Assembly (NCBI RefSeq): GCF_014696615.1 | Contig: NZ_JACJQJ010000071.1 | Coordinates: forward strand, 1-43,487 | Length of the DNA stretch: 43,487 nucleotides | Direction: 5' to 3' | From: Nostoc linckia FACHB-104 | GTDB taxonomy: Bacteria; Cyanobacteriota; Cyanobacteriia; Cyanobacteriales; Nostocaceae | Shown here: piece by piece, positions 15,443 to 23,608 of the stretch | Layout: each line of letters begins with the position of its first letter | Numbering within the stretch: position 1 is the first letter of the stretch | The notes under the pieces: generated by a model | What the model was told of the DNA's origin: nothing | The model's input: the letters and a program-made list of their open reading frames with translations, nothing else | Databases searched by the model: none | Translations under genes and position numbers: made by a program

Positions 15443-15746
15443 TAGTATTTTAGTTAAAGTAGTAAATTTCTTATTATTCTCACGCATTTAGAGGTTATTT
15501 ATAAAGTAAAAATCAAATTAATGTAAGATTTATTATTCCAATTTACAAAAATAGTTAAACCAATATGTAGGGGCAAGGCAGTGCCTTGCCCTCTACAATA
15601 ATTTTATATATTGCCAACTTATTTAAATTGGTATTAATCAAAAATTATGAGCTAATTTCCTCATGAAATATAATATTATCCCAGCATATTCAGTTTTTAA
15701 TCAGGCAATGCCTACCTTATATATATTTACCTATTTTCTGCTTTTC
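15443..15746. other. Intergenic region with hairpin element
   Basis: Spacer between the FAD gene start and the stop of the STAND ATPase. It carries a repeat at 15557-15634 and nothing else that I can name. Confidence 0.4.
15557..15634. repeat. MITE-like element with GTAGGGGCAAGGCA hairpin
   Basis: Ends ACCAAT / AATTGGTAT flank a strong palindrome GTAGGGGCAAGGCA - TGCCTTGCCCTCTAC (15567-15596). The same palindrome occurs at 22736-22764, with partial copies near 14020 and a GC-richer variant at 11172-11234. Confidence 0.55.
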
Positions 15747-16838
15747 TCAATTGATATTATCTACCAACCATTTACAGAAACTTGCATGATAAAAGCTGTA
15801 ATATTCTGCGCCTGATATTTGTTGCTGGGTTAAAAACTCAAACCAATTTTCTAACACTTCTTCAATATCAAATTCATCTACATTGAGAATTTCGGCAATT
15901 GCTTCTACAGAGATGGGCTGCTGTTGCTTAACTAAAACTTTCAACACGGCTTGGCTAAATTCCTTATCTTGATTTGCAGCTTTCATTTTTTGCCAATGCT
16001 GTTGATAATATGTTTCTAAACCAGGCGGGATTTGATTGTATTGCCAAGATTCTGGATAGAAACCCTCAGAGATAGCGGCTAAAATTTGGCTGACATACAT
16101 AAAATTATTTTCTGATTTAGCAGCAAGGCTAGTGCAAAATTCTTGCTCGTTGATTTGGTGATGATTTAGCCAAGCTTTTATATCTTCGTGATTTAAATAT
16201 TGTTGAATATATGTTTGGATATCTTGCTGAGTTGATTCTGAGTAGTCTGCTAAATTAAGAATATGGGATGGTGTTTCAATTAATAAACCAGATTTCTCTC
16301 TCAAAAAAGGTCGGCGGGTGAGGAGAAAATAAACTCTATCTGGGAGATAGCGGGGAAGATAAAATAAATTTGTACCAGGAGATTGACTATTGCGGTCAAT
16401 GCGGTCTAAACCATCAATAGTAATGATGAGTTTTTGCTGAGGTTTTAACTCATCGCTGATTTGCTGAATTAATTGATGTAGAGATGTGATGTTGAAAGTC
16501 TCTACAGGTAAGTTATCAATAGCAAAAATCTCTATAAGTTGGGTGCAAATATTGCTAATAAATTCCTCGGCGCGATTTTTACCCTCAAGTTCAACGTTGT
16601 AATAGACAACATGAGGATTATCTGTCGCATATTTGGCGAGAATTGCACTTTTACCGCTACCGGGTGCGCCTGTGATGGTGAAGTAACCCTGGCGATAACG
16701 GTGAATAAATTCATCAATCGCTGTAAATACAAATTCACGACCGATAAAATTATGGCTTTTGGCTTGAATAATTTGCTCAAACTCTGTGGGATGTCCTCTG
16801 GAATTGATTGTAGTGGGTGGTTTGGGAAGTGAATTCAT
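15747..16838 (-). CDS. STAND/NACHT-type ATPase without sensor repeats
   Basis: A 363-residue ATPase, last gene of a three-gene operon. FIGREFVF opens the ATPase module (31-38). Walker A is GAPGSGKS at 57-64; Walker B LIITIDGLDRID at 137-148; sensor-like RVYFLLTRRPF at about 168-178. A helical/winged region follows and the protein stops after YYSFYHASFCKWLVDN. It is a clear paralogue of residues about 105-455 of the ATPase at 20423-21865 but lacks that protein's N-terminal HTH domain, and no WD40 part is attached. It may be a bare switch whose effector and sensor are the two small upstream proteins. No strong ribosome binding site; it starts 29 bp after the preceding gene. Confidence 0.82.
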   Translation of the reverse strand: MNSLPKPPTTINSRGHPTEFEQIIQAKSHNFIGREFVFTAIDEFIHRYRQGYFTITGAPGSGKSAILAKYATDNPHVVYYNVELEGKNRAEEFISNICTQLIEIFAIDNLPVETFNITSLHQLIQQISDELKPQQKLIITIDGLDRIDRNSQSPGTNLFYLPRYLPDRVYFLLTRRPFLREKSGLLIETPSHILNLADYSESTQQDIQTYIQQYLNHEDIKAWLNHHQINEQEFCTSLAAKSENNFMYVSQILAAISEGFYPESWQYNQIPPGLETYYQQHWQKMKAANQDKEFSQAVLKVLVKQQQPISVEAIAEILNVDEFDIEEVLENWFEFLTQQQISGAEYYSFYHASFCKWLVDNIN

Positions 16839-16867
16839 AATTATTCTGTATAGCTGATAAATATAAG

Positions 16868-17293
16868 TTAAACAAATTCTGGTTGTGATTGCTGGTTTAG
16901 TTGCAGATACTCAATAATCAATAAGCGCAGGTAATCTAACATTTGCAAATAGGCTTTAATTTGTCTGTATGCTTGAAGATTCGCAAAATAAAACTGAGCA
17001 ATCACTGAAATATCAAATATTCGCATATTTTGTAGTTTCTCAATAGCCTGTTGTGTATTTTCAATTCGACCTCGCGCTTGAATTTGACTGGCGTAACCTC
17101 TGATATCTACTGTTAATAGTTCGATTTCTTCTAAAAGTGTAAATTCTTCTTCAGAGCTAGCATAAAAAGCAGCAATTTCTTGACGTTCTTGTTTGGTGTT
17201 GCGGTAATCAATACTTAACTGCTCTAGTAATTGAATAATGTAATTCCTTTTCATTTCTGGGCTTTGAGTATTTAAGGCTGCTTCAGTCATCAT
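16868..17293 (-). CDS. Helical protein of unknown function in STAND ATPase operon
   Basis: A 141-residue protein that I do not recognise. It is predicted mostly helical, rich in Glu, Gln, Ile and Leu. Heptad-like stretches (IIQLLEQLSIDYRNTKQERQ, AIEKLQNMRIFDISVIAQF, LQMLDYLRLLIIEYLQ) suggest a coiled-coil or helical bundle. There is no signal peptide and no cysteine. Its start overlaps the end of the upstream gene by 11 nt, with GGAG just before the ATG, so translation is probably coupled. It sits between a small basic protein and a STAND ATPase, a layout that suggests an adaptor, inhibitor or effector. Function is inference only. Confidence 0.65.
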   Translation of the reverse strand: MMTEAALNTQSPEMKRNYIIQLLEQLSIDYRNTKQERQEIAAFYASSEEEFTLLEEIELLTVDIRGYASQIQARGRIENTQQAIEKLQNMRIFDISVIAQFYFANLQAYRQIKAYLQMLDYLRLLIIEYLQLNQQSQPEFV

Positions 17294-17627
17294 TTACTCC
17301 ATAAGTAACTATTTTTTCTATCCCAAATTTATCAGTCCGTACAATTAAATATTCATTACCTTTGCGATAAACTGCTGAACCATCAGGGCGGTATCCAGCT
17401 TTTGGAACTCTTACTGCTCTCTTTTTATTGAAGTTATCAGCTTTTCTTAAGTATTTTAATGGATCGAACTCTTTTCTAGAGGCATGGTCTAGAATACTTT
17501 GGGAAACACTGATATATGTTGAAGCATCCCAGTCATTTAAGTATTGCTTTATTTCAATAACTTCATCTTCAGTATATCCTTGACATAATTGTTCTAAAAA
17601 TGGGTCTTTTGGTAGTTCATACTGCAT
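17283..17627 (-). CDS. Small protein of unknown function, first gene of STAND operon
   Basis: A 114-residue protein. The N-terminal half is acidic and helical (FLEQLCQGYTEDEVIEIKQY). The C-terminal half is basic and strand-rich: KKRAVRVPKAGYRPDGSAVY, then YRKGNEYLIVRTDKFG, ending IEKIVTYGVNDD. That C-terminal pattern (repeated short strands with R, K, T and Y residues) is reminiscent of small nuclease-fold toxin domains of the barnase/RelE kind, but I cannot identify catalytic residues and do not assign that function. It overlaps the next gene by 11 nt and begins the operon leading to the STAND ATPase. It is divergent from the Uma2-family gene, with only about 70 bp between them. Confidence 0.6.
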   Translation of the reverse strand: MQYELPKDPFLEQLCQGYTEDEVIEIKQYLNDWDASTYISVSQSILDHASRKEFDPLKYLRKADNFNKKRAVRVPKAGYRPDGSAVYRKGNEYLIVRTDKFGIEKIVTYGVNDD

Positions 17628-17700
17628 TGTTTTTGACTAAAATTGCTTCATTTAAAAGATTTAATAAGGTAAGACAAACTATGAGAAGACAGTGGAGGTA

Positions 17701-18264
17701 ATGATAACTGTGCAGTTATTAAGACGTAAATTCACAGTTGAGCAATATCACAAAATGCTTGAGTCGGGGATTCTCACAGAAGATGACCGAGTGGAATTGA
17801 TCCGGGGAGAAGTTATTGAGATGTCGCCTATTGGGACAAAACACGCGGCTTGTGTAAATCGCTTGATTAATTTGTTAGTGCAATTGTTAGGAAAGCGCGT
17901 TATAGTTGCGGCGCAAAATCCGATTAGATTAAACGATAACTCACAACCTCAGCCAGATGTAGCATTACTTAAACCCCGTGATGATTTTTACGTCACTGCT
18001 CACCCCCAACCCCAGGATATTTTTTTATTAATTGAAGTAGCTGATTCCACTATTGAGTATGACCAAGAACAGAAAATTCCTTTATATGCAGAAGCAAACA
18101 TAATTGAAGTTTGGTTAGTAGATATTAACGAGCAAATTGTCGAAGTTTATCAACAACCTACCGCCGCAGGATATCAGCATATTCAAAAGTTTGCTAGCGG
18201 TCAAACTTTATCAATTCTAGGCTTAAGCGATGTAAACATTAGCGTCAATGAAATCCTCTGTTAG
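17701..18264 (+). CDS. Uma2 family (DUF820) endonuclease-like protein
   Basis: A 187-residue member of the Uma2 family, a PD-(D/E)XK nuclease-fold group greatly expanded in cyanobacteria. Visible are the N-terminal FTVEQYHKMLESGILTEDDR and VELIRGEVIEMSPIG, then the putative catalytic elements QPDVALLKP (about 84-92), LLIEVADSTIEYDQEQK (about 108-124) and YAEANIIEVWLVDI. Biological role is unknown for most members. A GTG at 17692 could add three residues; GGAGG at 17694-17698 overlaps the region between the two starts. It lies inside the conflict-type island, between the three-gene operon and the WD40 gene, and is convergent with the latter. Confidence 0.85.
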   Translation: MITVQLLRRKFTVEQYHKMLESGILTEDDRVELIRGEVIEMSPIGTKHAACVNRLINLLVQLLGKRVIVAAQNPIRLNDNSQPQPDVALLKPRDDFYVTAHPQPQDIFLLIEVADSTIEYDQEQKIPLYAEANIIEVWLVDINEQIVEVYQQPTAAGYQHIQKFASGQTLSILGLSDVNISVNEILC

Positions 18265-18294
18265 TCATCTTATATATAGTTTCTCCAGTACAAA

Positions 18295-18340
18295 TGACCA
18301 ATGACAAATGACAAATGACAAATGACGAATTACGAATTAC
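18295..18340. repeat. Short tandem repeat between Uma2 and WD40 genes
   Basis: Head-to-tail 7-mers of the form AATGACA, drifting to ACGAATT. Typical cyanobacterial short tandem repeat DNA at a convergent gene junction; it runs a few bases into the 3' end of the WD40 gene. Confidence 0.6.
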
Positions 18341-20291
18341 CTCCCTTGTTCTCAACCTGCAAAAAATGTACCTTACCTGAAGCATCACCCGCTATGATTG
18401 TCATGCCATCAGGTGCAACTGCAAAGCAAGAAATGGAACCTTCGCCTGTGAAAGTGGCAATTACCTCCCTTGTCTCCAGATTCCAGACTTTGAGGGTGTT
18501 GTCAGATGAACCAGAAATCACCCGTTGACCATCGGGAGTAACGACGATCGCTCTTACAAAGGAACTATGACCCTTGAGGGTGAAGAGTTCTGCTCCAGTT
18601 TGCAGATTCCAGACTTTGAGGGTGTTGTCATCGGAAGCAGAAATCACCCGTTGACCATCGGGAGTCACGGCGATCGCTCTTACCCAGTCACTATGACCAT
18701 TGAGGGTGAAGAGTTCTGCTCCAGTTTGCAGATTCCAGACTTTGAGGGTGTTGTCAGATGAAGCAGAAATCACCCGTTGACCATCAGGAGTAACGGCGAT
18801 CGCATTTACCCAGTTACTATGACCCTTGAGGGTGAAGAGTTCTGCTCCAGTTTGCAGATTCCAGACTTTGAGGGTGTTGTCAACAGAACCAGAAATCACC
18901 CGTTGACCATCGGGAGTAACGGCGATCGCATTTACCCAGTTACTATGACCCTTGAGGGTGAAGAGTTCTGCTCCAGTTTGCAGATTCCAGACTTTGAGGG
19001 TGTTGTCGCCGGAAGCAGAAATCACCCGTTGACCATCGGGAGTAACGGCGATCGCACTTACAAAGGAACTATGACCCTTGAGGGTGAAGAGTTCTGCTCC
19101 AGTTTGCAGATTCCAGACTTTGAGGGTTTTGTCATCGGAAGCAGAAATCACCCGTTGACCATCGGGAGTCACGGCGATCGCTATTACCGAGTTACTATGA
19201 CCCTTGAGGAGGGTGAAGAGTTCTGCTTCAGTTTGCAGATTCCAGACTTTGAGGGTGTTGTCAACAGAACCAGAAATCACCCGTTGACCATCGGGAGTAA
19301 CGGCGATCGCTCTTACATAGGAACTATGACCCTTAAGGGTGAATAGTTCTTTTCCAGTTTGCAGATTCCAGACTTTGAGGGTCTTGTCATCTGAACTAGA
19401 AATTACCCGTTGACCATCGGGAGTCAGGGCGATCGCACTTACCGAGTTACTATAACCCTTGAGGGTGAAGAGTTCTGCTCCAGTTTGCAGATTCCAGACT
19501 TTGAGGGTGTTGTCATCGGAAGCAGAAATCACCCGTTGACCATCAGGAGTAAGGGAGATCGCACTTACAAAGGAACTATGACCCTTGAGGGTGAAGAGTT
19601 CTGCTCCAGTTTGCAGATTCCAGACTTTGAGGGTTTTGTCAACAGAACCAGAAATCACCCGTTGACCATCGGGAGTAACGGCGATCGCACTTATCGGCTT
19701 ACGATGACCCTTGAGGGTGAATAGTTCCTCTCCAGTTTGCAGATTCCAGACTTTGAGGCTGTTGTCAGATGAACCAGAAATCACCCTTTGACCATCGGGA
19801 GTGAGGGCGATCGCATTTACAAAGGAACTATGACCTGTGAGGGTGCGGATTAAGCGTCCCCCTGGTGGCGTTAAGCTTGGGGTTACGGGACGCAGCCAAG
19901 GGGTAGTTGTCTGTTGCTGAATTTGTCTTAATAATGCCTGAATATCGTCTGGCATATTCTCATGTAGTAACCTTCCATGCAATTGACTCGCTAATTGCTG
20001 CTTATCTGTTACTAAAACATGGGCGGATAGTCTCAATGCACCTTGAAGTAATTTGAGAGTTTTGAAGTTTTCAGAGGTTTCAGCACTATCAATCAAATCA
20101 TAATCTTCAATTAAAGACTGCACCCCAAACTCAGGATGATTAATTTTGGCATTAATGAAATCAAAATCAGTCAGGGTTTGGTAATACTTCTCTAAATTTA
20201 CGGAGTTGACCAGATTATAAGGATATCTGCCCAGATAAGCTTTGACTTTGTAAGACTTTTTAGATAAATATTTATCAGTTGTTTCGACCAT
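18330..20291 (-). CDS. WD40 repeat protein with APAF1-like helical N-terminus
   Basis: A 653-residue protein. Residues 1-140 are helical and match the linker that in other cyanobacterial STAND proteins joins the ATPase to the WD40 part: KYYQTLTDFDFINAKI, GVQSLIEDYDLI, LLQGALRLSAHVL, then TPWLRPVTPSLTPPGG. Residues 148-600 hold eleven nearly identical 42-residue WD40 repeats (consensus TPDGQRVIS...LKVWNLQTG), and a divergent twelfth repeat closes the protein. Differences between repeats cluster at a few positions after GH and around S-x-S-x-D, which lie on one propeller face. It lacks an ATPase; the matching ATPase is the next gene upstream, 131 bp away. It probably serves as the ligand-sensing half of a split STAND receptor. 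Confidence 0.9.
   Translation of the reverse strand: MVETTDKYLSKKSYKVKAYLGRYPYNLVNSVNLEKYYQTLTDFDFINAKINHPEFGVQSLIEDYDLIDSAETSENFKTLKLLQGALRLSAHVLVTDKQQLASQLHGRLLHENMPDDIQALLRQIQQQTTTPWLRPVTPSLTPPGGRLIRTLTGHSSFVNAIALTPDGQRVISGSSDNSLKVWNLQTGEELFTLKGHRKPISAIAVTPDGQRVISGSVDKTLKVWNLQTGAELFTLKGHSSFVSAISLTPDGQRVISASDDNTLKVWNLQTGAELFTLKGYSNSVSAIALTPDGQRVISSSDDKTLKVWNLQTGKELFTLKGHSSYVRAIAVTPDGQRVISGSVDNTLKVWNLQTEAELFTLLKGHSNSVIAIAVTPDGQRVISASDDKTLKVWNLQTGAELFTLKGHSSFVSAIAVTPDGQRVISASGDNTLKVWNLQTGAELFTLKGHSNWVNAIAVTPDGQRVISGSVDNTLKVWNLQTGAELFTLKGHSNWVNAIAVTPDGQRVISASSDNTLKVWNLQTGAELFTLNGHSDWVRAIAVTPDGQRVISASDDNTLKVWNLQTGAELFTLKGHSSFVRAIVVTPDGQRVISGSSDNTLKVWNLETREVIATFTGEGSISCFAVAPDGMTIIAGDASGKVHFLQVENKGGNS
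18465..19850 (-). repeat. Eleven 126-bp coding tandem repeats (WD40)
   Basis: Eleven consecutive 126-bp units, highly similar at the DNA level, lie within the WD40 gene. Most units carry a HIP1-like GCGATCGC in the codons for A-I-A. One unit has an extra codon (TLLKGH, near 19207-19212). Long overlapping frames on the plus strand here are mirror images of the repeat and are not genes. Confidence 0.9.
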
Positions 20292-20311
20292 TTCATTTTA
20301 TATTTTTCAAT

Positions 20312-20421
20312 ATGTAGGTTGGGTTGAGGAACGAAACCCAACAATCAACAACTTTTTCTATAACACTAATCATCAAAAAAGAATTAAGGTGCGTTAGCCT
20401 GCGGCATAACACACCCTACAT
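20312..20421. repeat. MITE-like palindromic element between STAND ATPase and WD40 genes
   Basis: About 110 bp bounded by ATGTAGG and CCTACAT (inverted ends). It contains two hairpins: TTGGGTTGAGG...ACGAAACCCAA on the left, and GGTGCGTTA...TAACACACC on the right. It is noncoding and occupies almost all of the 131-bp gap between the ATPase stop and the WD40 start. Exact insertion boundaries and any target duplication cannot be fixed by eye. Confidence 0.6.
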
Positions 20422-20422
20422 C

Positions 20423-21865
20423 CTATGAATATTTAATATTCTTTTCCCAGTAATTAACAATGCGTTGATTTACCTCTGTAAATAGCTGTCGCTTGGCTTG
20501 CAATGCTCTTTGCGTTTGGAGAAAATCTAAAAAACTGGCGTGATAGATGCTGTAACAATCATCTCCATCTACATTCTGTTTTTTCAAATACTCTAACCAG
20601 TCATCTAAAACTTTTTGCACCTCAAACTCATCTTTTTCTGCAATATCAGCAATCATTTCACAAGGTATGGGCGTGCCAATTTCTACTAAGATAAACAAAA
20701 TAATTACTTTAATCTCTTCATCTTTGTTATTCATCCCCATCCGCGCCCAGTGGGTTTGATAATATTGCTGAAGACCATCTGGTAATTCTTTTAAACTCAA
20801 GTCATTATAAAAGCCCCGCGCAATCCCTGGTAAAACATAGCGCAGATACATGAAATTATTTTCACTCTTGGCTGCTACCTGCTCAATAAAAGTTTCATCA
20901 GCAATATTTTGTTCTTGCATCCATTTCCTCAAACCATCTTTCCACTCTGTGTCATGGTTAAGAATGAAGCGGATATATGCTTGAATATCATCACGACTTA
21001 ATTCAATATACTGATTTGCTGTTAAATTTAACTCTACTTGCTCGACACCTTCAGTATATAAGCGCTTTTTACTGGGTTCATAGCGTCGCCTCGTCAGCAA
21101 AAAATAAACTTTATCTGGTAGAGTCTTAGGCAAATATAAAATATTTTCTCCGCCTGGTTCTTGTTCTACTTCATCCAATGCATCAACCACAATCACCAAG
21201 TTTTCACCATCAGGAATTTTGCTACTAGCTTTAACTAATAAAGCTGATAAATCATCACTCTCAGCATTTTCTAACTGGTAGCGATTAATTAGCTGCTGAC
21301 GAATGCTTTTAAGAAATAATTCCGGGCGATTGCGTCCATCTTGCAAGACATTAAAATAACAAATCGCCTGATTATCATAAACATACTTGGCTGCTATAGC
21401 ACTTTTCCCCATCCCTGCATCACCAATCACGGTAAAATAACCCTTGGGATATTTTTTGAGGAGATCTGCAAACTCTTTAAATACAAATTCCCGCCCACAA
21501 AACGAGCGAATCTTTTCTTTAATTAGCGGTTCAAACTCTGCTGGGATTGTTGACGATGTCACAGGGTTGGAAATTGCTCTATTTATATCTGGTTGATGAT
21601 AATTTTTCTTCAGGTAAGTTCGCAAAAGCTCAAACTTTCCTGCACCTTCTTGGGTAGCTAATGCAGGACAACTCTCACGAAATTTATCATAAATAATTTT
21701 TAGTCTACTTTTGACGGCAGCTTCAGATATTTTTAATTCATCTGCAAGTTTGACTTGGCTGATTTGGGCATTTTCATGAGGTAGCGCAGCCAATAAAGTC
21801 TCTTCTTGTTCTGGTGACAAGCCATGTTTACCCGCCTCTTGACGAAGAAAATCTTGCCAATCCAT
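20423..21865 (-). CDS. HTH-STAND (NACHT-like) ATPase, sensor part encoded separately
   Basis: A 480-residue protein. Residues 1-90 form an HTH module (SQVKLADELKISEAAVKSRL) like the N-terminal domain of vWA-MoxR-associated and related cyanobacterial conflict proteins. The ATPase begins at FCGREFVF (122-129). Walker A is GDAGMGKS at 148-155; Walker B LVIVVDALDEV at 223-233; KVYFLLTRRRYEP follows. The C-terminal winged/helical part ends CYSIYHASFLDFLQTQ...INYW-like residues and stops where related proteins continue into a helical linker and WD40 repeats. That missing continuation is found in the next gene (18330-20291). Divergent 232 bp upstream lies a small two-helix membrane protein. Probably a regulated NTPase switch in an immunity or cell-death system. 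Confidence 0.87.
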   Translation of the reverse strand: MDWQDFLRQEAGKHGLSPEQEETLLAALPHENAQISQVKLADELKISEAAVKSRLKIIYDKFRESCPALATQEGAGKFELLRTYLKKNYHQPDINRAISNPVTSSTIPAEFEPLIKEKIRSFCGREFVFKEFADLLKKYPKGYFTVIGDAGMGKSAIAAKYVYDNQAICYFNVLQDGRNRPELFLKSIRQQLINRYQLENAESDDLSALLVKASSKIPDGENLVIVVDALDEVEQEPGGENILYLPKTLPDKVYFLLTRRRYEPSKKRLYTEGVEQVELNLTANQYIELSRDDIQAYIRFILNHDTEWKDGLRKWMQEQNIADETFIEQVAAKSENNFMYLRYVLPGIARGFYNDLSLKELPDGLQQYYQTHWARMGMNNKDEEIKVIILFILVEIGTPIPCEMIADIAEKDEFEVQKVLDDWLEYLKKQNVDGDDCYSIYHASFLDFLQTQRALQAKRQLFTEVNQRIVNYWEKNIKYS

Positions 21866-22097
21866 GAATGTGATTCCCCGGTCAATTTAGCAAAGATTAT
21901 AACTTATCTGTTGCTTTTGTTGCATAATTTTGACGATCTATACCTTGAATATACCTTAGTTATACCTCTCTTATATCTACTTTAATTAGACCTATATTTA
22001 TACTTTCATCAAACTTCAGTCTTGCTAAAGGGTGACACGATAAAGATGTGGATAAAAACCACCAGAAAATCCCAACCAAAAATAAAAATAGGTAATT

Positions 22098-22391
22098 ATG
22101 AAAGTTAATTATGGCAACAAAGCACAAACAAATCACAACATTAATGATGTAAAAAAAGAATTTATGCAAGAACTATTAAGACAAGCAAAATTAACCTTCA
22201 ATTTAGCTTTGAGTGTCACCGCCGCTTCTGCCATTATGACTTTAGGCGGTGTAGGTTTGCTGTATTTCAACAAAGTATCAGAAGCCAGTCTCACAGCCGG
22301 AGGTGGCGCACTGGCTACTATCACCAGCATTCAATTCGCCAAGCAAACCAAAGAGGAATTATTAGAGATAATAGAACAAGCAGAGCAGTAA
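22098..22391 (+). CDS. Small two-helix membrane protein, TRADD-N-associated type
   Basis: A 97-residue protein. A polar N-terminus with an amphipathic stretch (NDVKKEFMQELLRQAKLTFN) is followed by two hydrophobic helices: about 37-58 (LALSVTAASAIMTLGGVGLL) and 62-80 (SEASLTAGGGALATITSIQF). A charged tail KQTKEELLEIIEQAEQ ends it. This layout and the wording of the helices resemble the cyanobacterial TRADD-N-associated 2TM domain described with bacterial conflict systems; this is recalled from motif resemblance, not from a search. The ATG at 22098 has AGGT 5 nt upstream. It is divergent from the HTH-STAND ATPase, so it may be that system's membrane effector or anchor. Confidence 0.7.
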   Translation: MKVNYGNKAQTNHNINDVKKEFMQELLRQAKLTFNLALSVTAASAIMTLGGVGLLYFNKVSEASLTAGGGALATITSIQFAKQTKEELLEIIEQAEQ

Positions 22392-22451: not shown

Positions 22452-22670
22452 TCATTTCGCCTTCCAAACGAAAACATTCTGGTTCTGAACAGGAAAGTTC
22501 TTGTTTGGAACAAAAACATTCTCGTTTGGAACAGGAATATTCTCGTTTAGAACCTGAACATTCTCATTTGTAACCGGAAAGTTCTCGTTTCAACCTAGAA
22601 CATTCTCATTTGTAACCGGAACATTTTCGTTCAGAACATGAACATTCTTGTTTCCAGGCTGAACCTTCAT
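22452..22670 (-). pseudogene. Possible broken heptad-repeat peptide gene
   Basis: The minus-strand frame starts MKVQPGNKNVHVLNENVPV and continues as seven-residue repeats of NENVxV type to a stop after VWKAK. One internal TGA (codon 27) breaks it. A run of 73 codons with one stop in this AT-rich repeat DNA may reflect former coding use or simply the repeat's 21-bp period. It has no recognised homologue. Confidence 0.25.
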
Positions 22671-22764: not shown

Positions 22765-22801
22765 AATAAATATTGTGGATCAAGGGTTTCATGGATTAGT
22801 G

Positions 22802-23608
22802 TTAATCTTCTGGTTCAACTGCGCTTTCGTGCCATTTACGTAATATAAAGTCCGATAAAGCACTCAAGCTGACGAAAATTAACACACCCAACCCCGTAGT
22901 CAGAAATAATGCGGCGAACATTCGCGGAATTTGCAGGTTATAGCTGGAAATGAGAATGCGATAGGCGATACCGGATTTTTCCCCGCCAGTTCCCGCGACA
23001 AATTCCGCGACAACTGCGCCAATTAAAGCTAAACCACCGCTAATTTTTAACCCACCTAAGAAGTATGGCATGGCACTGGGTAAGCGCAAATACAGCAGGG
23101 TTTGCCAACGAGAGGCTTTGTAGAGTTGAAATAAGTTGAGTAAGTTGCGGTCTACACTGTTGAGTCCCAAAGTAGTATTAGAGACGATGGGGAAAAAGGC
23201 GACAATCCAGGCGCAAACTACTAAGGCGGCGAAGGTATTGTTTTTGAACCAGAGAATAATTAAAGGTGCGATCGCAACTATGGGAGTTGTCTGTAAAATG
23301 ACTGCATAGGGAAATAAGCTGCGCTCAATCCATTTGCTTTGGGTAAACAATATCGCTATCAATAGCCCAGAAATTGCAGCAGCAACAAAGGCGACAACTG
23401 TTATTTGTAGGGTAATTAATAAGGATGAGAACAACTCATTCCAATCACTAATTAAGGTTTGCAATACTAAGATGGGGCCAGGGAGAATATAGGGCGGTAA
23501 TTGTGTAATCCGCACGAATACATCCCACAATAGCAATGCGAAAATCCCAACTAACACAGGTGCAACAATCTCAGGCGAGAGTAATTTGGGGCGACGTTTA
23601 AATAGCAT
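22802..23608 (-). CDS. ABC transporter permease, ThiX/SsuC-type
   Basis: A 268-residue inner-membrane permease of the BPD_transp_1 family with about six membrane helices. The EAA-type loop that contacts the ATPase is seen as GAVVAEFVAGTGGEKSGIA (about 195-213). It belongs to the taurine/nitrate/NMT1-type importers. It is the last gene of the operon TPR protein - binding protein - zinc-ribbon protein - ATPase - permease, 10 bp after the ATPase gene. With an NMT1/THI5-like binding protein, candidate substrates are pyrimidines (thiamine precursor, uracil or another nucleobase). The neighbouring uracil-degradation cluster favours a pyrimidine. Confidence 0.88.
   Translation of the reverse strand: MLFKRRPKLLSPEIVAPVLVGIFALLLWDVFVRITQLPPYILPGPILVLQTLISDWNELFSSLLITLQITVVAFVAAAISGLLIAILFTQSKWIERSLFPYAVILQTTPIVAIAPLIILWFKNNTFAALVVCAWIVAFFPIVSNTTLGLNSVDRNLLNLFQLYKASRWQTLLYLRLPSAMPYFLGGLKISGGLALIGAVVAEFVAGTGGEKSGIAYRILISSYNLQIPRMFAALFLTTGLGVLIFVSLSALSDFILRKWHESAVEPED

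What the first reader, a model, noticed from the sequence alone, without database searches (positions are those of the whole stretch)
15747..22391. A compact STAND-based conflict island with two paralogous ATPases
Seen: two related ATPases (same FxGREFVF entry, Walker motifs and HASF ending), a WD40 receptor, an HTH module, a Uma2 nuclease-like protein, two unknown small proteins and a two-helix membrane protein, all within 6.7 kb. Known: cyanobacterial HTH-STAND-WD40 and TRADD-N-linked genes have been proposed as immunity or programmed-death systems. Inference: the 363-residue ATPase with its two small partners and the 480-residue ATPase with the WD40 and 2TM proteins are two units of one defence locus. 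This is the best candidate in the window for an undescribed system.
Basis: partly seen in the sequence, partly recalled or inferred. Interest (0 to 1): 0.75.

Follow-up and report, generated by a model that had tools for sequence, protein, structure and literature searches.

The report
Split NLR-like switch with swappable head
A filamentous cyanobacterium carries a three-gene immune-receptor-like switch (an ATPase, a fast-changing WD40 sensor and a helper-like ATPase) whose DNA-binding head may control a neighbouring membrane-protein gene, whereas two small genes that looked like partners are an unrelated insert.

Summary
The recurrent system is: L-ATPase (interchangeable N-terminal head plus NACHT-like core), a separate WD40 receptor, then S-ATPase. 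All 24 loci found with full-length L and S have a linker/WD40 gene between them. S keeps Walker A but has lost the Walker-B glutamate invariant in L (1 of 32 versus 88 of 88). The 114- and 141-residue genes form a free-standing pair. Its slot is 33 bp in one relative and holds a UPF0175-DUF3368 pair in another. The 2TM gene follows L's head: a near-identical locus in Nostoc carneum lacks it and has an NNH5 head instead. Two classes of HTH-headed L carry class-specific operator-like repeats, mostly between L and a divergent small membrane gene. In the window these are five 7-bp repeats; their phased core occurs once in the 9.4 Mb genome. Best reading: a MalT-like, NLR-related switch whose HTH head controls a membrane effector, with S as an ATP-binding, hydrolysis-impaired helper. 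No function was tested. New variant of a known kind.

The parts
20423..21865 (-). L-ATPase: N-terminal HTH head (about residues 1-105; 'ECF-like' is my label) plus NACHT-like STAND core (about 107-450); ends shortly after the HASF motif
   Evidence: ORF; AAA_16/NPHP3_N/NACHT/TANC1-lid; domain limits; D-A-L-D-E Walker B with Glu in 88 of 88 L
18330..20291 (-). Separate WD40 receptor: linker (about residues 1-150) plus 11 near-identical 42-residue blades with hypervariable positions 4,5,7,21,23,25
   Evidence: separate linker/WD40 gene downstream of 85 of 88 L
15747..16838 (-). S-ATPase: bare STAND core with no head and no receptor; Walker A intact, Walker-B Glu position is Arg (R146)
   Evidence: follows the WD40 gene in all 24 L+S loci
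22098..22391 (+). Divergent small membrane protein, PF20712 (CyanoTRADDas_TM); candidate effector
   Evidence: PF20712 E 4.2e-17; a divergent small membrane gene of one of two families next to 16 of 21 Xre/ECF-HTH L and 0 of 67 others
21939..22005 (-). Operator-like array: five A(A/G)GT(C/A)TA repeats at 21939-21945, 21950-21956, 21961-21967, 21987-21993, 21999-22005, in the 232-bp gap between the L and 2TM start codons
   Evidence: the three 11-bp-phased repeats occur once in the genome, 0 in 100 shuffles of the window
17692..18264 (+). Uma2 family gene at the WD40/S junction; association probably incidental
   Evidence: PF05685; same slot in L119 and L127; 54 matches in the genome
17283..17627 (-). 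114-aa protein, first gene of an inserted pair (toxin-like candidate); not part of the switch
   Evidence: model pLDDT 92; best Foldseek hit RelE but E 0.033, not significant
16868..17293 (-). 141-aa all-helical protein, second gene of the inserted pair
18477..19845 (.). 126-bp tandem repeat array coding most of the WD40 blades (10.8 copies, 89% matches)

Best explanation
The locus is a split, NLR-like conflict switch. Sensing (inferred): the separate WD40 protein, whose variable residues change fast, recognises a trigger, probably an invader protein. Switching (inferred from the family): in most relatives the WD40 gene overlaps or abuts the end of L (in the window the gap is 131 bp), and the two act as one split HTH-STAND-WD40 receptor that oligomerises with ATP. 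S, the bare ATPase downstream, keeps the ATP-binding motif but has lost the Walker-B glutamate, so it is most likely a helper or nucleator that joins the L assembly in a long-lived ATP state. Output (supported by sequence, not by experiment): in HTH-headed versions the clustered HTH heads bind phased repeats between L and the divergent small membrane gene and control that gene, in the manner of the STAND activator MalT (recalled); the 2TM product then damages or depolarises the membrane. In other versions the HTH-operator-2TM cassette is replaced by another head such as NNH5, and no 2TM gene is present. The 114/141 pair and probably Uma2 are inserts at the WD40/S junction.
For: Trio: all 24 loci holding full-length L and S have a linker/WD40 gene between them; 20 of the 28 S-clade loci reached from sites are trios, 3 more are cut within 700 bp by a contig end and one (L125) within 1.8 kb. 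Unit: 85 of 88 L are followed on the same strand by a separate linker/WD40 gene, commonest spacing a 4-bp overlap (starts are the first start codon after a stop, so mechanical); rare fusions join L-WD40 (L241) and WD40-S (L100). S and L distances correlate (Mantel r 0.55, n 23 without L100, p 0.0002). S: Walker A 32 of 32, Mg-binding Asp 32 of 32, Glu 1 of 32 against 88 of 88 in L. Head swap: L134 (Nostoc carneum NIES-2107) is 94-96% identical to the window over most of the STAND core, S and flanks, but has an NNH5 head (E 5.5e-51) and no 2TM match; head types interleave on the L tree. Operators in the 600 bp upstream of all 88 L: ECF-HTH repeat 30 seen against 0.9 expected, at least 4 copies in 5 of 6 ECF loci, at least 2 in 0 of 82 others; Xre-HTH site 33 against 0.9, at least 2 in 11 of 15 and 0 of 73 others. 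Small membrane gene: 16 of 21 against 0 of 67. Sensor: hypervariable positions 229 nonsynonymous to 2 synonymous pairwise codon differences, rest 205 to 138; Calothrix membranacea blades 95 to 2 and 147 to 72.
Against: No function was tested; defence is inferred from family and evolution. 4 of 28 S-clade loci have no L although more than 6 kb upstream was held (L105, L106, L112, L129; L129 keeps a 68-bp match to L). 64 of 88 L lie in stretches without a full-length S, so S is dispensable to most of the family. No sigma-70-like promoter was found between L and 2TM (shuffles gave 1.9 on average). The window's HTH is only weakly scored, and for the HTH-like partners of other PF20712 genes Pfam names an HTH in at most two of 18 (25 of 30 families shown). 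Motifs were found by eye on some of the loci later counted, and several loci are close relatives (window/L135; L133/L230; L107/L108/L228; L114/L115/L246), so counts are not independent events. One membrane family's model was built from five of the six genes it finds. The 2TM could be an anchor, sensor or brake. Pairwise codon counts between blades are not independent.
Confidence: 0.5

Rival explanations
1. The HTH head is a repressor: resting L binds the divergent repeats and silences both its own operon and the 2TM gene; triggering releases it. 2TM is still the effector.
For: The operator lies between two divergent genes, a layout common for autorepressors; Xre-like proteins are often repressors (both recalled). 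Xre sites come as half-sites 27-28 bp apart in 8 of the 11 loci with two or more (44-45 bp in the other 3).
Against: The ECF-type array of helically phased direct repeats is more like activator arrays such as MalT boxes (recalled). STAND proteins are usually multimers when active (recalled).
Confidence: 0.25
2. The HTH heads are protein adaptors that recruit the 2TM protein directly at the membrane; the repeats only autoregulate the operon.
For: PF20712 genes elsewhere lie divergent from genes of other architectures with HTH-like N-termini (by eye); of 18 such neighbours scanned 10 have TRADD-like_N. EAD-type adaptors are described (PMC8195603, passages and section 9 read).
Against: Class-specific DNA repeats next to the HTH genes call for a DNA-binding role; both HTH classes pair with both membrane families.
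Confidence: 0.15
3. S is a brake or decoy rather than a helper: a nucleotide-binding but hydrolysis-poor paralogue that holds L inactive until the trigger appears.
For: S lost the Walker-B Glu and carries no head or receptor; most L loci lack S.
Against: The WD40-S fusion (L100) and 24 of 24 ordered trios fit a complex subunit equally well; in NOD2 the equivalent Glu is a gain-of-function site (recalled).
Confidence: 0.25
4. One reading: two units, one being the 363-aa ATPase with its two small proteins, the other the 480-aa ATPase with WD40 and 2TM.
For: Gene order in the window; the pair is also present at the same place in L134, L135 and L137.
Against: 71 of 75 pair loci show no match to S in the held flank and one more (L146) only a 27% partial one (flanks up to 6 kb, shorter at contig ends); 28 of 32 S-clade loci lack the pair; near-empty slot in L127 and another pair in L119.
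Confidence: 0.03
5. Not defence but a house-keeping or developmental regulator of filamentous cyanobacteria.
For: The family is nearly confined to one GTDB order: 36 of the 38 matching genomes in a phylum draw of 292 (how many of the 292 lie outside the order was not shown).
Against: Patchy presence (65 of 195 genomes match S or L), broken copies (L120, L128), plasmid carriage, one of them in Pseudanabaena, head swapping and fast WD40 change.
Confidence: 0.15

Closest known systems
Bacterial NACHT / NLR-related (bNACHT) proteins
   Same: NACHT-like STAND core with variable N-terminal head and a repeat sensor; NNH5 (PF22736) heads occur in this family (9 of 83 L scanned)
   Different: The sensor is a separate gene in 85 of 88 cases and one clade adds a second, Glu-less ATPase. 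The founding bNACHT paper (PMC10294775) was not held, so the comparison is partly recalled
Npun_R6612 operon of Nostoc punctiforme: a TIR-STAND gene coupled to a STAND-WRAP gene (as told in PMC9218822, passages read)
   Same: Cyanobacterial operon of two STAND ATPases plus a highly repetitive WD40 propeller; the window WD40's best PDB match is 2ymu (E 7e-208), the WRAP structure (PMC6805158, passages read)
   Different: There WD40 is fused to one ATPase and the head is TIR; here WD40 is free, the head is HTH or NNH5, and S is bare. Homology of the ATPase cores was not tested
nSTAND2 two-gene system (PMC8195603, passages read)
   Same: Two STAND genes in one operon, one of them degenerate
   Different: Described as a different STAND family; there the inactive one carries the effector and its NTP motifs are eroded; here S keeps Walker A and has no effector. 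No nSTAND2 match was listed (whether Pfam holds such a model was not checked)
TRADD-N proteins with divergent PF20712 2TM gene in cyanobacteria
   Same: Divergent PF20712 gene next to a conflict-type protein with an HTH-like N-terminus
   Different: No TRADD-like_N match for the window L; its core is NACHT-like
MalT, STAND transcription activator (recalled)
   Same: ATPase-gated oligomer with HTH acting on phased direct repeats
   Different: In MalT the HTH is C-terminal and the regulon metabolic; here the head is N-terminal and the only strict triple array in the genome is local
Fungal NWD/HET NLRs (PMC4986451, passages read)
   Same: WD40 repeats with high internal identity and a few positions under diversifying selection
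   Different: Fused NACHT-WD40; non-self recognition in fungi

Membership tests
NACHT-like STAND NTPases | NACHT/AAA_16/NPHP3_N match with Walker A and Walker B | tested here: met
   L: NPHP3_N over its cut-off, NACHT 26.1 bits against cut-off 26.7; S: AAA_16 and AAA_22 over cut-off, NACHT 25.8. Strict G-x4-GK(S/T): 32 of 32 S, 43 of 88 L; in L the GxGK core is conserved (87-88 of 88) but the first Gly is often Ala
NACHT-like STAND NTPases | D-x-x-D-E Walker-B signature | tested here: inconclusive
   Glu in 88 of 88 L; in S in 1 of 32
bNACHT antiphage systems | Single-chain head-NACHT-sensor (recalled) | tested here: not met
   Sensor on a separate gene in the window and in 85 of 88 L; one fused
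bNACHT antiphage systems | Antiphage activity | not testable with these tools
   No experiment possible
AVAST/Avs (PADLOC, NCBIfam) | Full-length Avs model match | tested here: not met
   Avs1b matches only the NTPase region of both; NCBIfam, L only, 27.7 bits against cut-off 1500
TRADD-N / PF20712 system | PF20712 2TM gene | tested here: met
   E 4.2e-17, over cut-off
TRADD-N / PF20712 system | TRADD-like_N domain (PF20694) | tested here: not met
   Not among the matches (E up to 0.05) of the locus proteins; for the WD40 protein only 25 of 75 families were shown
nSTAND2 two-gene system | nSTAND2 family STAND domains | tested here: inconclusive
   No such match listed for either ATPase up to E 0.05, but whether the library holds the model was not checked
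MalT-like STAND transcription switch (works like) | Phased operator-like repeats at the promoter region concerned | tested here: met
   Five repeats, three 11-bp phased, unique in the genome as a triple; binding not tested
MalT-like STAND transcription switch (works like) | ATP-dependent oligomer binds and activates | not testable with these tools
   Needs protein work
Type II toxin-antitoxin (114/141 pair) | Conserved two-gene module, independent of neighbours | tested here: met
   141 relative found in 70 of 75 loci with 114; S-clade gene near in 3 of 75
Type II toxin-antitoxin (114/141 pair) | Known toxin fold or family | tested here: inconclusive
   No significant Pfam, PADLOC, NCBIfam, PHROGs or PDB-sequence match; Foldseek best RelE, E 0.033

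The most novel reading that the evidence does not exclude
A bacterial NLR-like immune receptor that works as a local transcription activator: a split receptor (WD40 plus NACHT-like ATPase), assisted by a natural ATP-locked helper ATPase, drives one adjacent membrane-killing gene through its own operator, and the whole head-operator-effector cassette is exchanged by recombination while the sensor-switch core stays.
Probability: 0.35. Interest if true: 0.82.

Novelty: new variant of a known kind. Interest (0 to 1): 0.62.

Why it matters
If right, it links two known uses of STAND ATPases, transcription switches such as MalT and NLR-type death switches (both recalled), in one locus, and offers a sensor-helper ATPase pair in bacteria that parallels paired NLRs of plants (recalled). 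It gives sharp, cheap tests: one operator, one effector gene, one lost catalytic residue, and a natural head swap between near-identical strains. It also corrects the reading of two small genes that would otherwise be studied as partners of the ATPase.

Tried and rejected
Rejected: the small proteins as ATPase partners. Rejected: Uma2 as a core part; 54 matches in the genome, fragments included, although a close Uma2 sits in the same slot in L119 and L127. Considered: 114 aa as a BECR/RelE-type RNase. I thought so by eye (recalled pattern); Foldseek gave RelE/ParE/CDI toxins among the top PDB hits but nothing significant, and no significant hit in the viral library. 141 aa: no significant fold hit. 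Considered: PADLOC Avs; only weak NTPase similarity. A search for perfect 7-bp-arm palindromes in the window's L-2TM gap found none; four loose inverted repeats were listed there and not used. The direct repeats and the Xre sites were noticed by eye on printed sequences of some loci and then counted over all 88 L. Long inverted repeats upstream of L114, L115, L246, L133, L230, L094, L121 and L130 look like dispersed repeats and were not used.

Rows dropped: homologues with stops or partial matches were left out of A1 and A2; A5 (114 aa) holds the window and 41 of the 75 loci; A6 (141 aa) the window and 35. A4 holds 83 of the 88 L. Places that were short fragments or weak were not all fetched, and that call's own table was cut. 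N-class counts use 84 of 88 L (4 have a head under 50 residues or none). The Mantel test leaves out L100. L120, with L and S in pieces, is in no trio count.

Literature: PMC8195603 section 9 and passages; PMC13174449 outline and passages; PMC7159879, PMC10907252, PMC9218822, PMC4986451, PMC6805158 and PMC5587647 passages only; others as search listings. Kibby 2023 not held. Statements that something was not found in print rest only on searches.

Full report
What is in the window. On the minus strand, in order of transcription: a 480-aa ATPase (L, 20423-21865), a 653-aa WD40 protein (18330-20291), then, past a Uma2 gene on the other strand (17692-18264), a 114-aa and a 141-aa gene that overlap by 11 bp, and a 363-aa ATPase (S, 15747-16838). 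Divergent from L lies a 97-aa membrane protein of family PF20712 (22098-22391). Both ATPases match NACHT-type models near their cut-offs (AAA_16, NPHP3_N, NACHT, TANC1 lid); PADLOC gives only weak similarity to the Avs1b NTPase region. The closest named relatives in the scan for the 114-aa gene are Nostoc carneum NIES-2107 (L134) and Calothrix membranacea FACHB-236 (L135), 94-96% identical in DNA over the main aligned blocks.

The two ATPases belong together. A search of 195 genomes of the order gave matches to S, which include L genes, in 65. I fetched stretches around most of the listed places and added three loci from the scan for the 114-aa gene and two from plasmids: 106 loci in all, window included, with 120 full-length ATPase domains. 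A midpoint-rooted tree puts 32 of them, 297-456 aa long apart from one fusion of 1309 aa, on one side (S clade, support 0.84); the other 88 are L type. In all 24 loci that hold a full-length gene of each, the order is L, linker/WD40, S on one strand. Of the 28 S-clade loci reached from sites (window included), 20 are such trios, 3 are cut by a contig end within 700 bp (L095, L116, L124), one within 1.8 kb (L125), and 4 have no L although over 6 kb upstream was held (L105, L106, L112, L129). An annotated example is M5J74_RS31890 to RS31880 on Chroococcidiopsis sp. CCNUC1 plasmid pB. In a draw of 292 genomes from the phylum, 36 of the 38 with a match belong to this order; the other two matches are weak. 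An L-type gene also lies on a Pseudanabaena plasmid, and relatives at 28-31% identity on Rhizobium, Bradyrhizobium and Sphingobium plasmids.

The receptor is a separate gene. 85 of 88 L are followed on the same strand by a linker/WD40 gene, most often overlapping by 4 bp (131 bp apart in the window); one L is fused to WD40 (L241), one lies at a contig end (L230), and in one (L256) no linker was found, though an ORF with WD repeats follows. L100 fuses WD40 to S. These fusions support one functional unit of L, WD40 and S. S and L distances correlate over 23 trios (Mantel r 0.55, p 0.0002); shared species history is not removed by this test.

S is a degenerate ATPase in a precise way. It keeps the Walker A pattern in 32 of 32 and the Mg-binding Asp in 32 of 32, but the Glu of the D-A-L-D-E Walker B, present in 88 of 88 L, is present in 1 of 32 S. 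Inference: S binds ATP and hydrolyses it poorly or not at all. In human NOD2 the equivalent Glu is a gain-of-function site (recalled). That S helps L rather than restrains it is my guess, not shown.

The sensor changes fast. The window WD40 has 11 blades of 42 residues. Variation between blades sits mainly at positions 4, 5, 7, 21, 23 and 25: 229 nonsynonymous against 2 synonymous pairwise codon differences there, 205 against 138 elsewhere. The positions were chosen on these blades, then checked on the 7 blades of L135, which except for the first are different: 95 against 2, and 147 against 72. The pairs are not independent. Such repetitive propellers with variable hot spots are known (PMC5587647, PMC9218822, passages read), as are fungal NLRs of this kind (PMC4986451, passages read).

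The head is exchanged as a cassette. L134 matches the window at 94-96% over the STAND core from about residue 109, over S and over both flanks (window 15700-18539, 19804-21540, 22799-22999), but its head is NNH5 (PF22736, E 5.5e-51) and no 2TM match was found in its 12.3 kb. L135 keeps the HTH head and the 2TM gene (93% identical). On the tree the L genes with S form one group (support 0.98), together with some L without S, in which Xre-HTH, ECF-HTH and NNH5 heads interleave. Head classes over 84 L and the number in loci with S: TM-type 31 (0), Xre-HTH 15 (10), NNH5 9 (9), class 3 7 (0), ECF-HTH 6 (4), other HTH 5 (1), HEPN 3 (0), kinase 2 (0), six others (0). Class names are mine, helped by Pfam (HTH_26 in 10, NNH5 in 9, HEPN_Swt1 in 3, Pkinase in 2 and Sigma70_r4 in 2 of 83 scanned).

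HTH heads come with operator-like repeats and a membrane gene. In the 600 bp upstream of all 88 L, the repeat A(A/G)GT(C/A)TA occurs 30 times in the 6 ECF-HTH loci (0.9 expected from shuffles), with at least 4 copies in 5 of 6, and in none of the other 82 loci twice; the exception, L241, also lacks a small membrane gene of the two families. GGGCAnAT or its complement occurs 33 times in the 15 Xre-HTH loci (0.9 expected), at least twice in 11, in 8 of these with a 27-28 bp step, and in none of the other 73 loci twice. Several of these loci are close relatives, so lineages are fewer than loci. In the window the five repeats lie at 21939-22005 between the two start codons; the three 11-bp-phased ones are the only such triple in the 9.39 Mb genome. 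A divergent small membrane gene of one of two families (PF20712, tested with a model from 20 genes outside these L loci; and a second, single-helix family, whose model was made from five of the six genes found) stands next to 16 of 21 Xre/ECF-HTH L and next to 0 of 67 others. A cruder hydropathy count gave 19 of 26 HTH against 7 of 62 others. PF20712 genes elsewhere are also often divergent from genes whose N-terminus looks HTH-like by eye; of 18 such neighbours scanned, 10 have TRADD-like_N and 9 pentapeptide repeats, while Pfam names an HTH in at most two (25 of 30 families shown). That an HTH head in these conflict proteins implies a transcriptional response was proposed for TRADD-N proteins (PMC8195603, section 9 read); the operators and the cassette swap I did not find described in the searches listed.

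The small genes are an insert. The genome scan found the 114-aa gene in 75 loci, with a 141-aa relative in 70; an S-clade gene is near in 3, L134, L135 and L137, all with the window's arrangement. At the Uma2/S junction L127 (same family) has 33 bp between the start codons, while L119 has a UPF0175 plus DUF3368 pair in this slot. Models of 114 (pLDDT 92, helices then a sheet) and 141 (pLDDT 89, all helical) gave no significant structural match. A toxin-antitoxin role is likely by position and organisation but untested.

Mechanism. Shown by sequence: recurrent trio, split receptor, loss of the S glutamate, head-cassette exchange, class-specific repeats, divergent membrane gene, variable sensor positions. 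Inferred: trigger binding by WD40, ATP-driven assembly of L with S, HTH binding to the repeats, control of the 2TM gene, membrane damage, defence. I put about 0.65 on the HTH head binding these repeats and controlling 2TM in either sense, and 0.5 on the whole model.

Verdict.

Noticed in passing
G000 contigs C173, C97, C57, C171, C125, C46 (L285-L290): Six further PF20712 2TM matches in the same genome; one lies in an open frame of 1203 aa (C125).
   Followed up: partly
window 22473-22653: Tandem array of 21/42-bp units just downstream of the 2TM gene; only patchy matches there in L134.
   Followed up: no
L094 (divergent ORF upstream of 6450), L114:5984-6202, L115:3994-4215, L100:4970-5209, L133:5246-5509, L230:1798-1998: A second family of small single-helix membrane proteins divergent from HTH-headed L genes. 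Of 31 small ORFs scanned with Pfam 10 matched PF20712, 3 weakly a phage holin model and 1 Rv2743c; which members these were was not shown.
   Followed up: partly
L099:9464-11155: L gene with a DUF4062 head (E 5e-5, slightly below cut-off), the domain reported as a TIR-like NADase in the Swarozyc preprint (PMC13174449, passages read).
   Followed up: no
L213:6675-9149: Pseudanabaena plasmid L gene with a MinD/ParA-like head (recognised by eye) next to a beta-propeller gene, with caspase and SAV_2336-related genes upstream.
   Followed up: no
L210, L211, L214: Distant S relatives (28-31% identity) on Rhizobium and Bradyrhizobium plasmids; two of the three stretches hold S8 peptidase genes.
   Followed up: no
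L103 (G000:C134): A second L gene in the same genome, followed by two WD40 genes and no S.
   Followed up: partly
L291 (G000:C180:13831-14226): An NNH5 domain in a 1441-aa open frame elsewhere in the genome, a possible donor kind for head swaps.
   Followed up: no
window 20292-20422: 131-bp gap between L and WD40, where many relatives overlap by 4 bp; it holds what look like dispersed cyanobacterial repeats (by eye).
   Followed up: no
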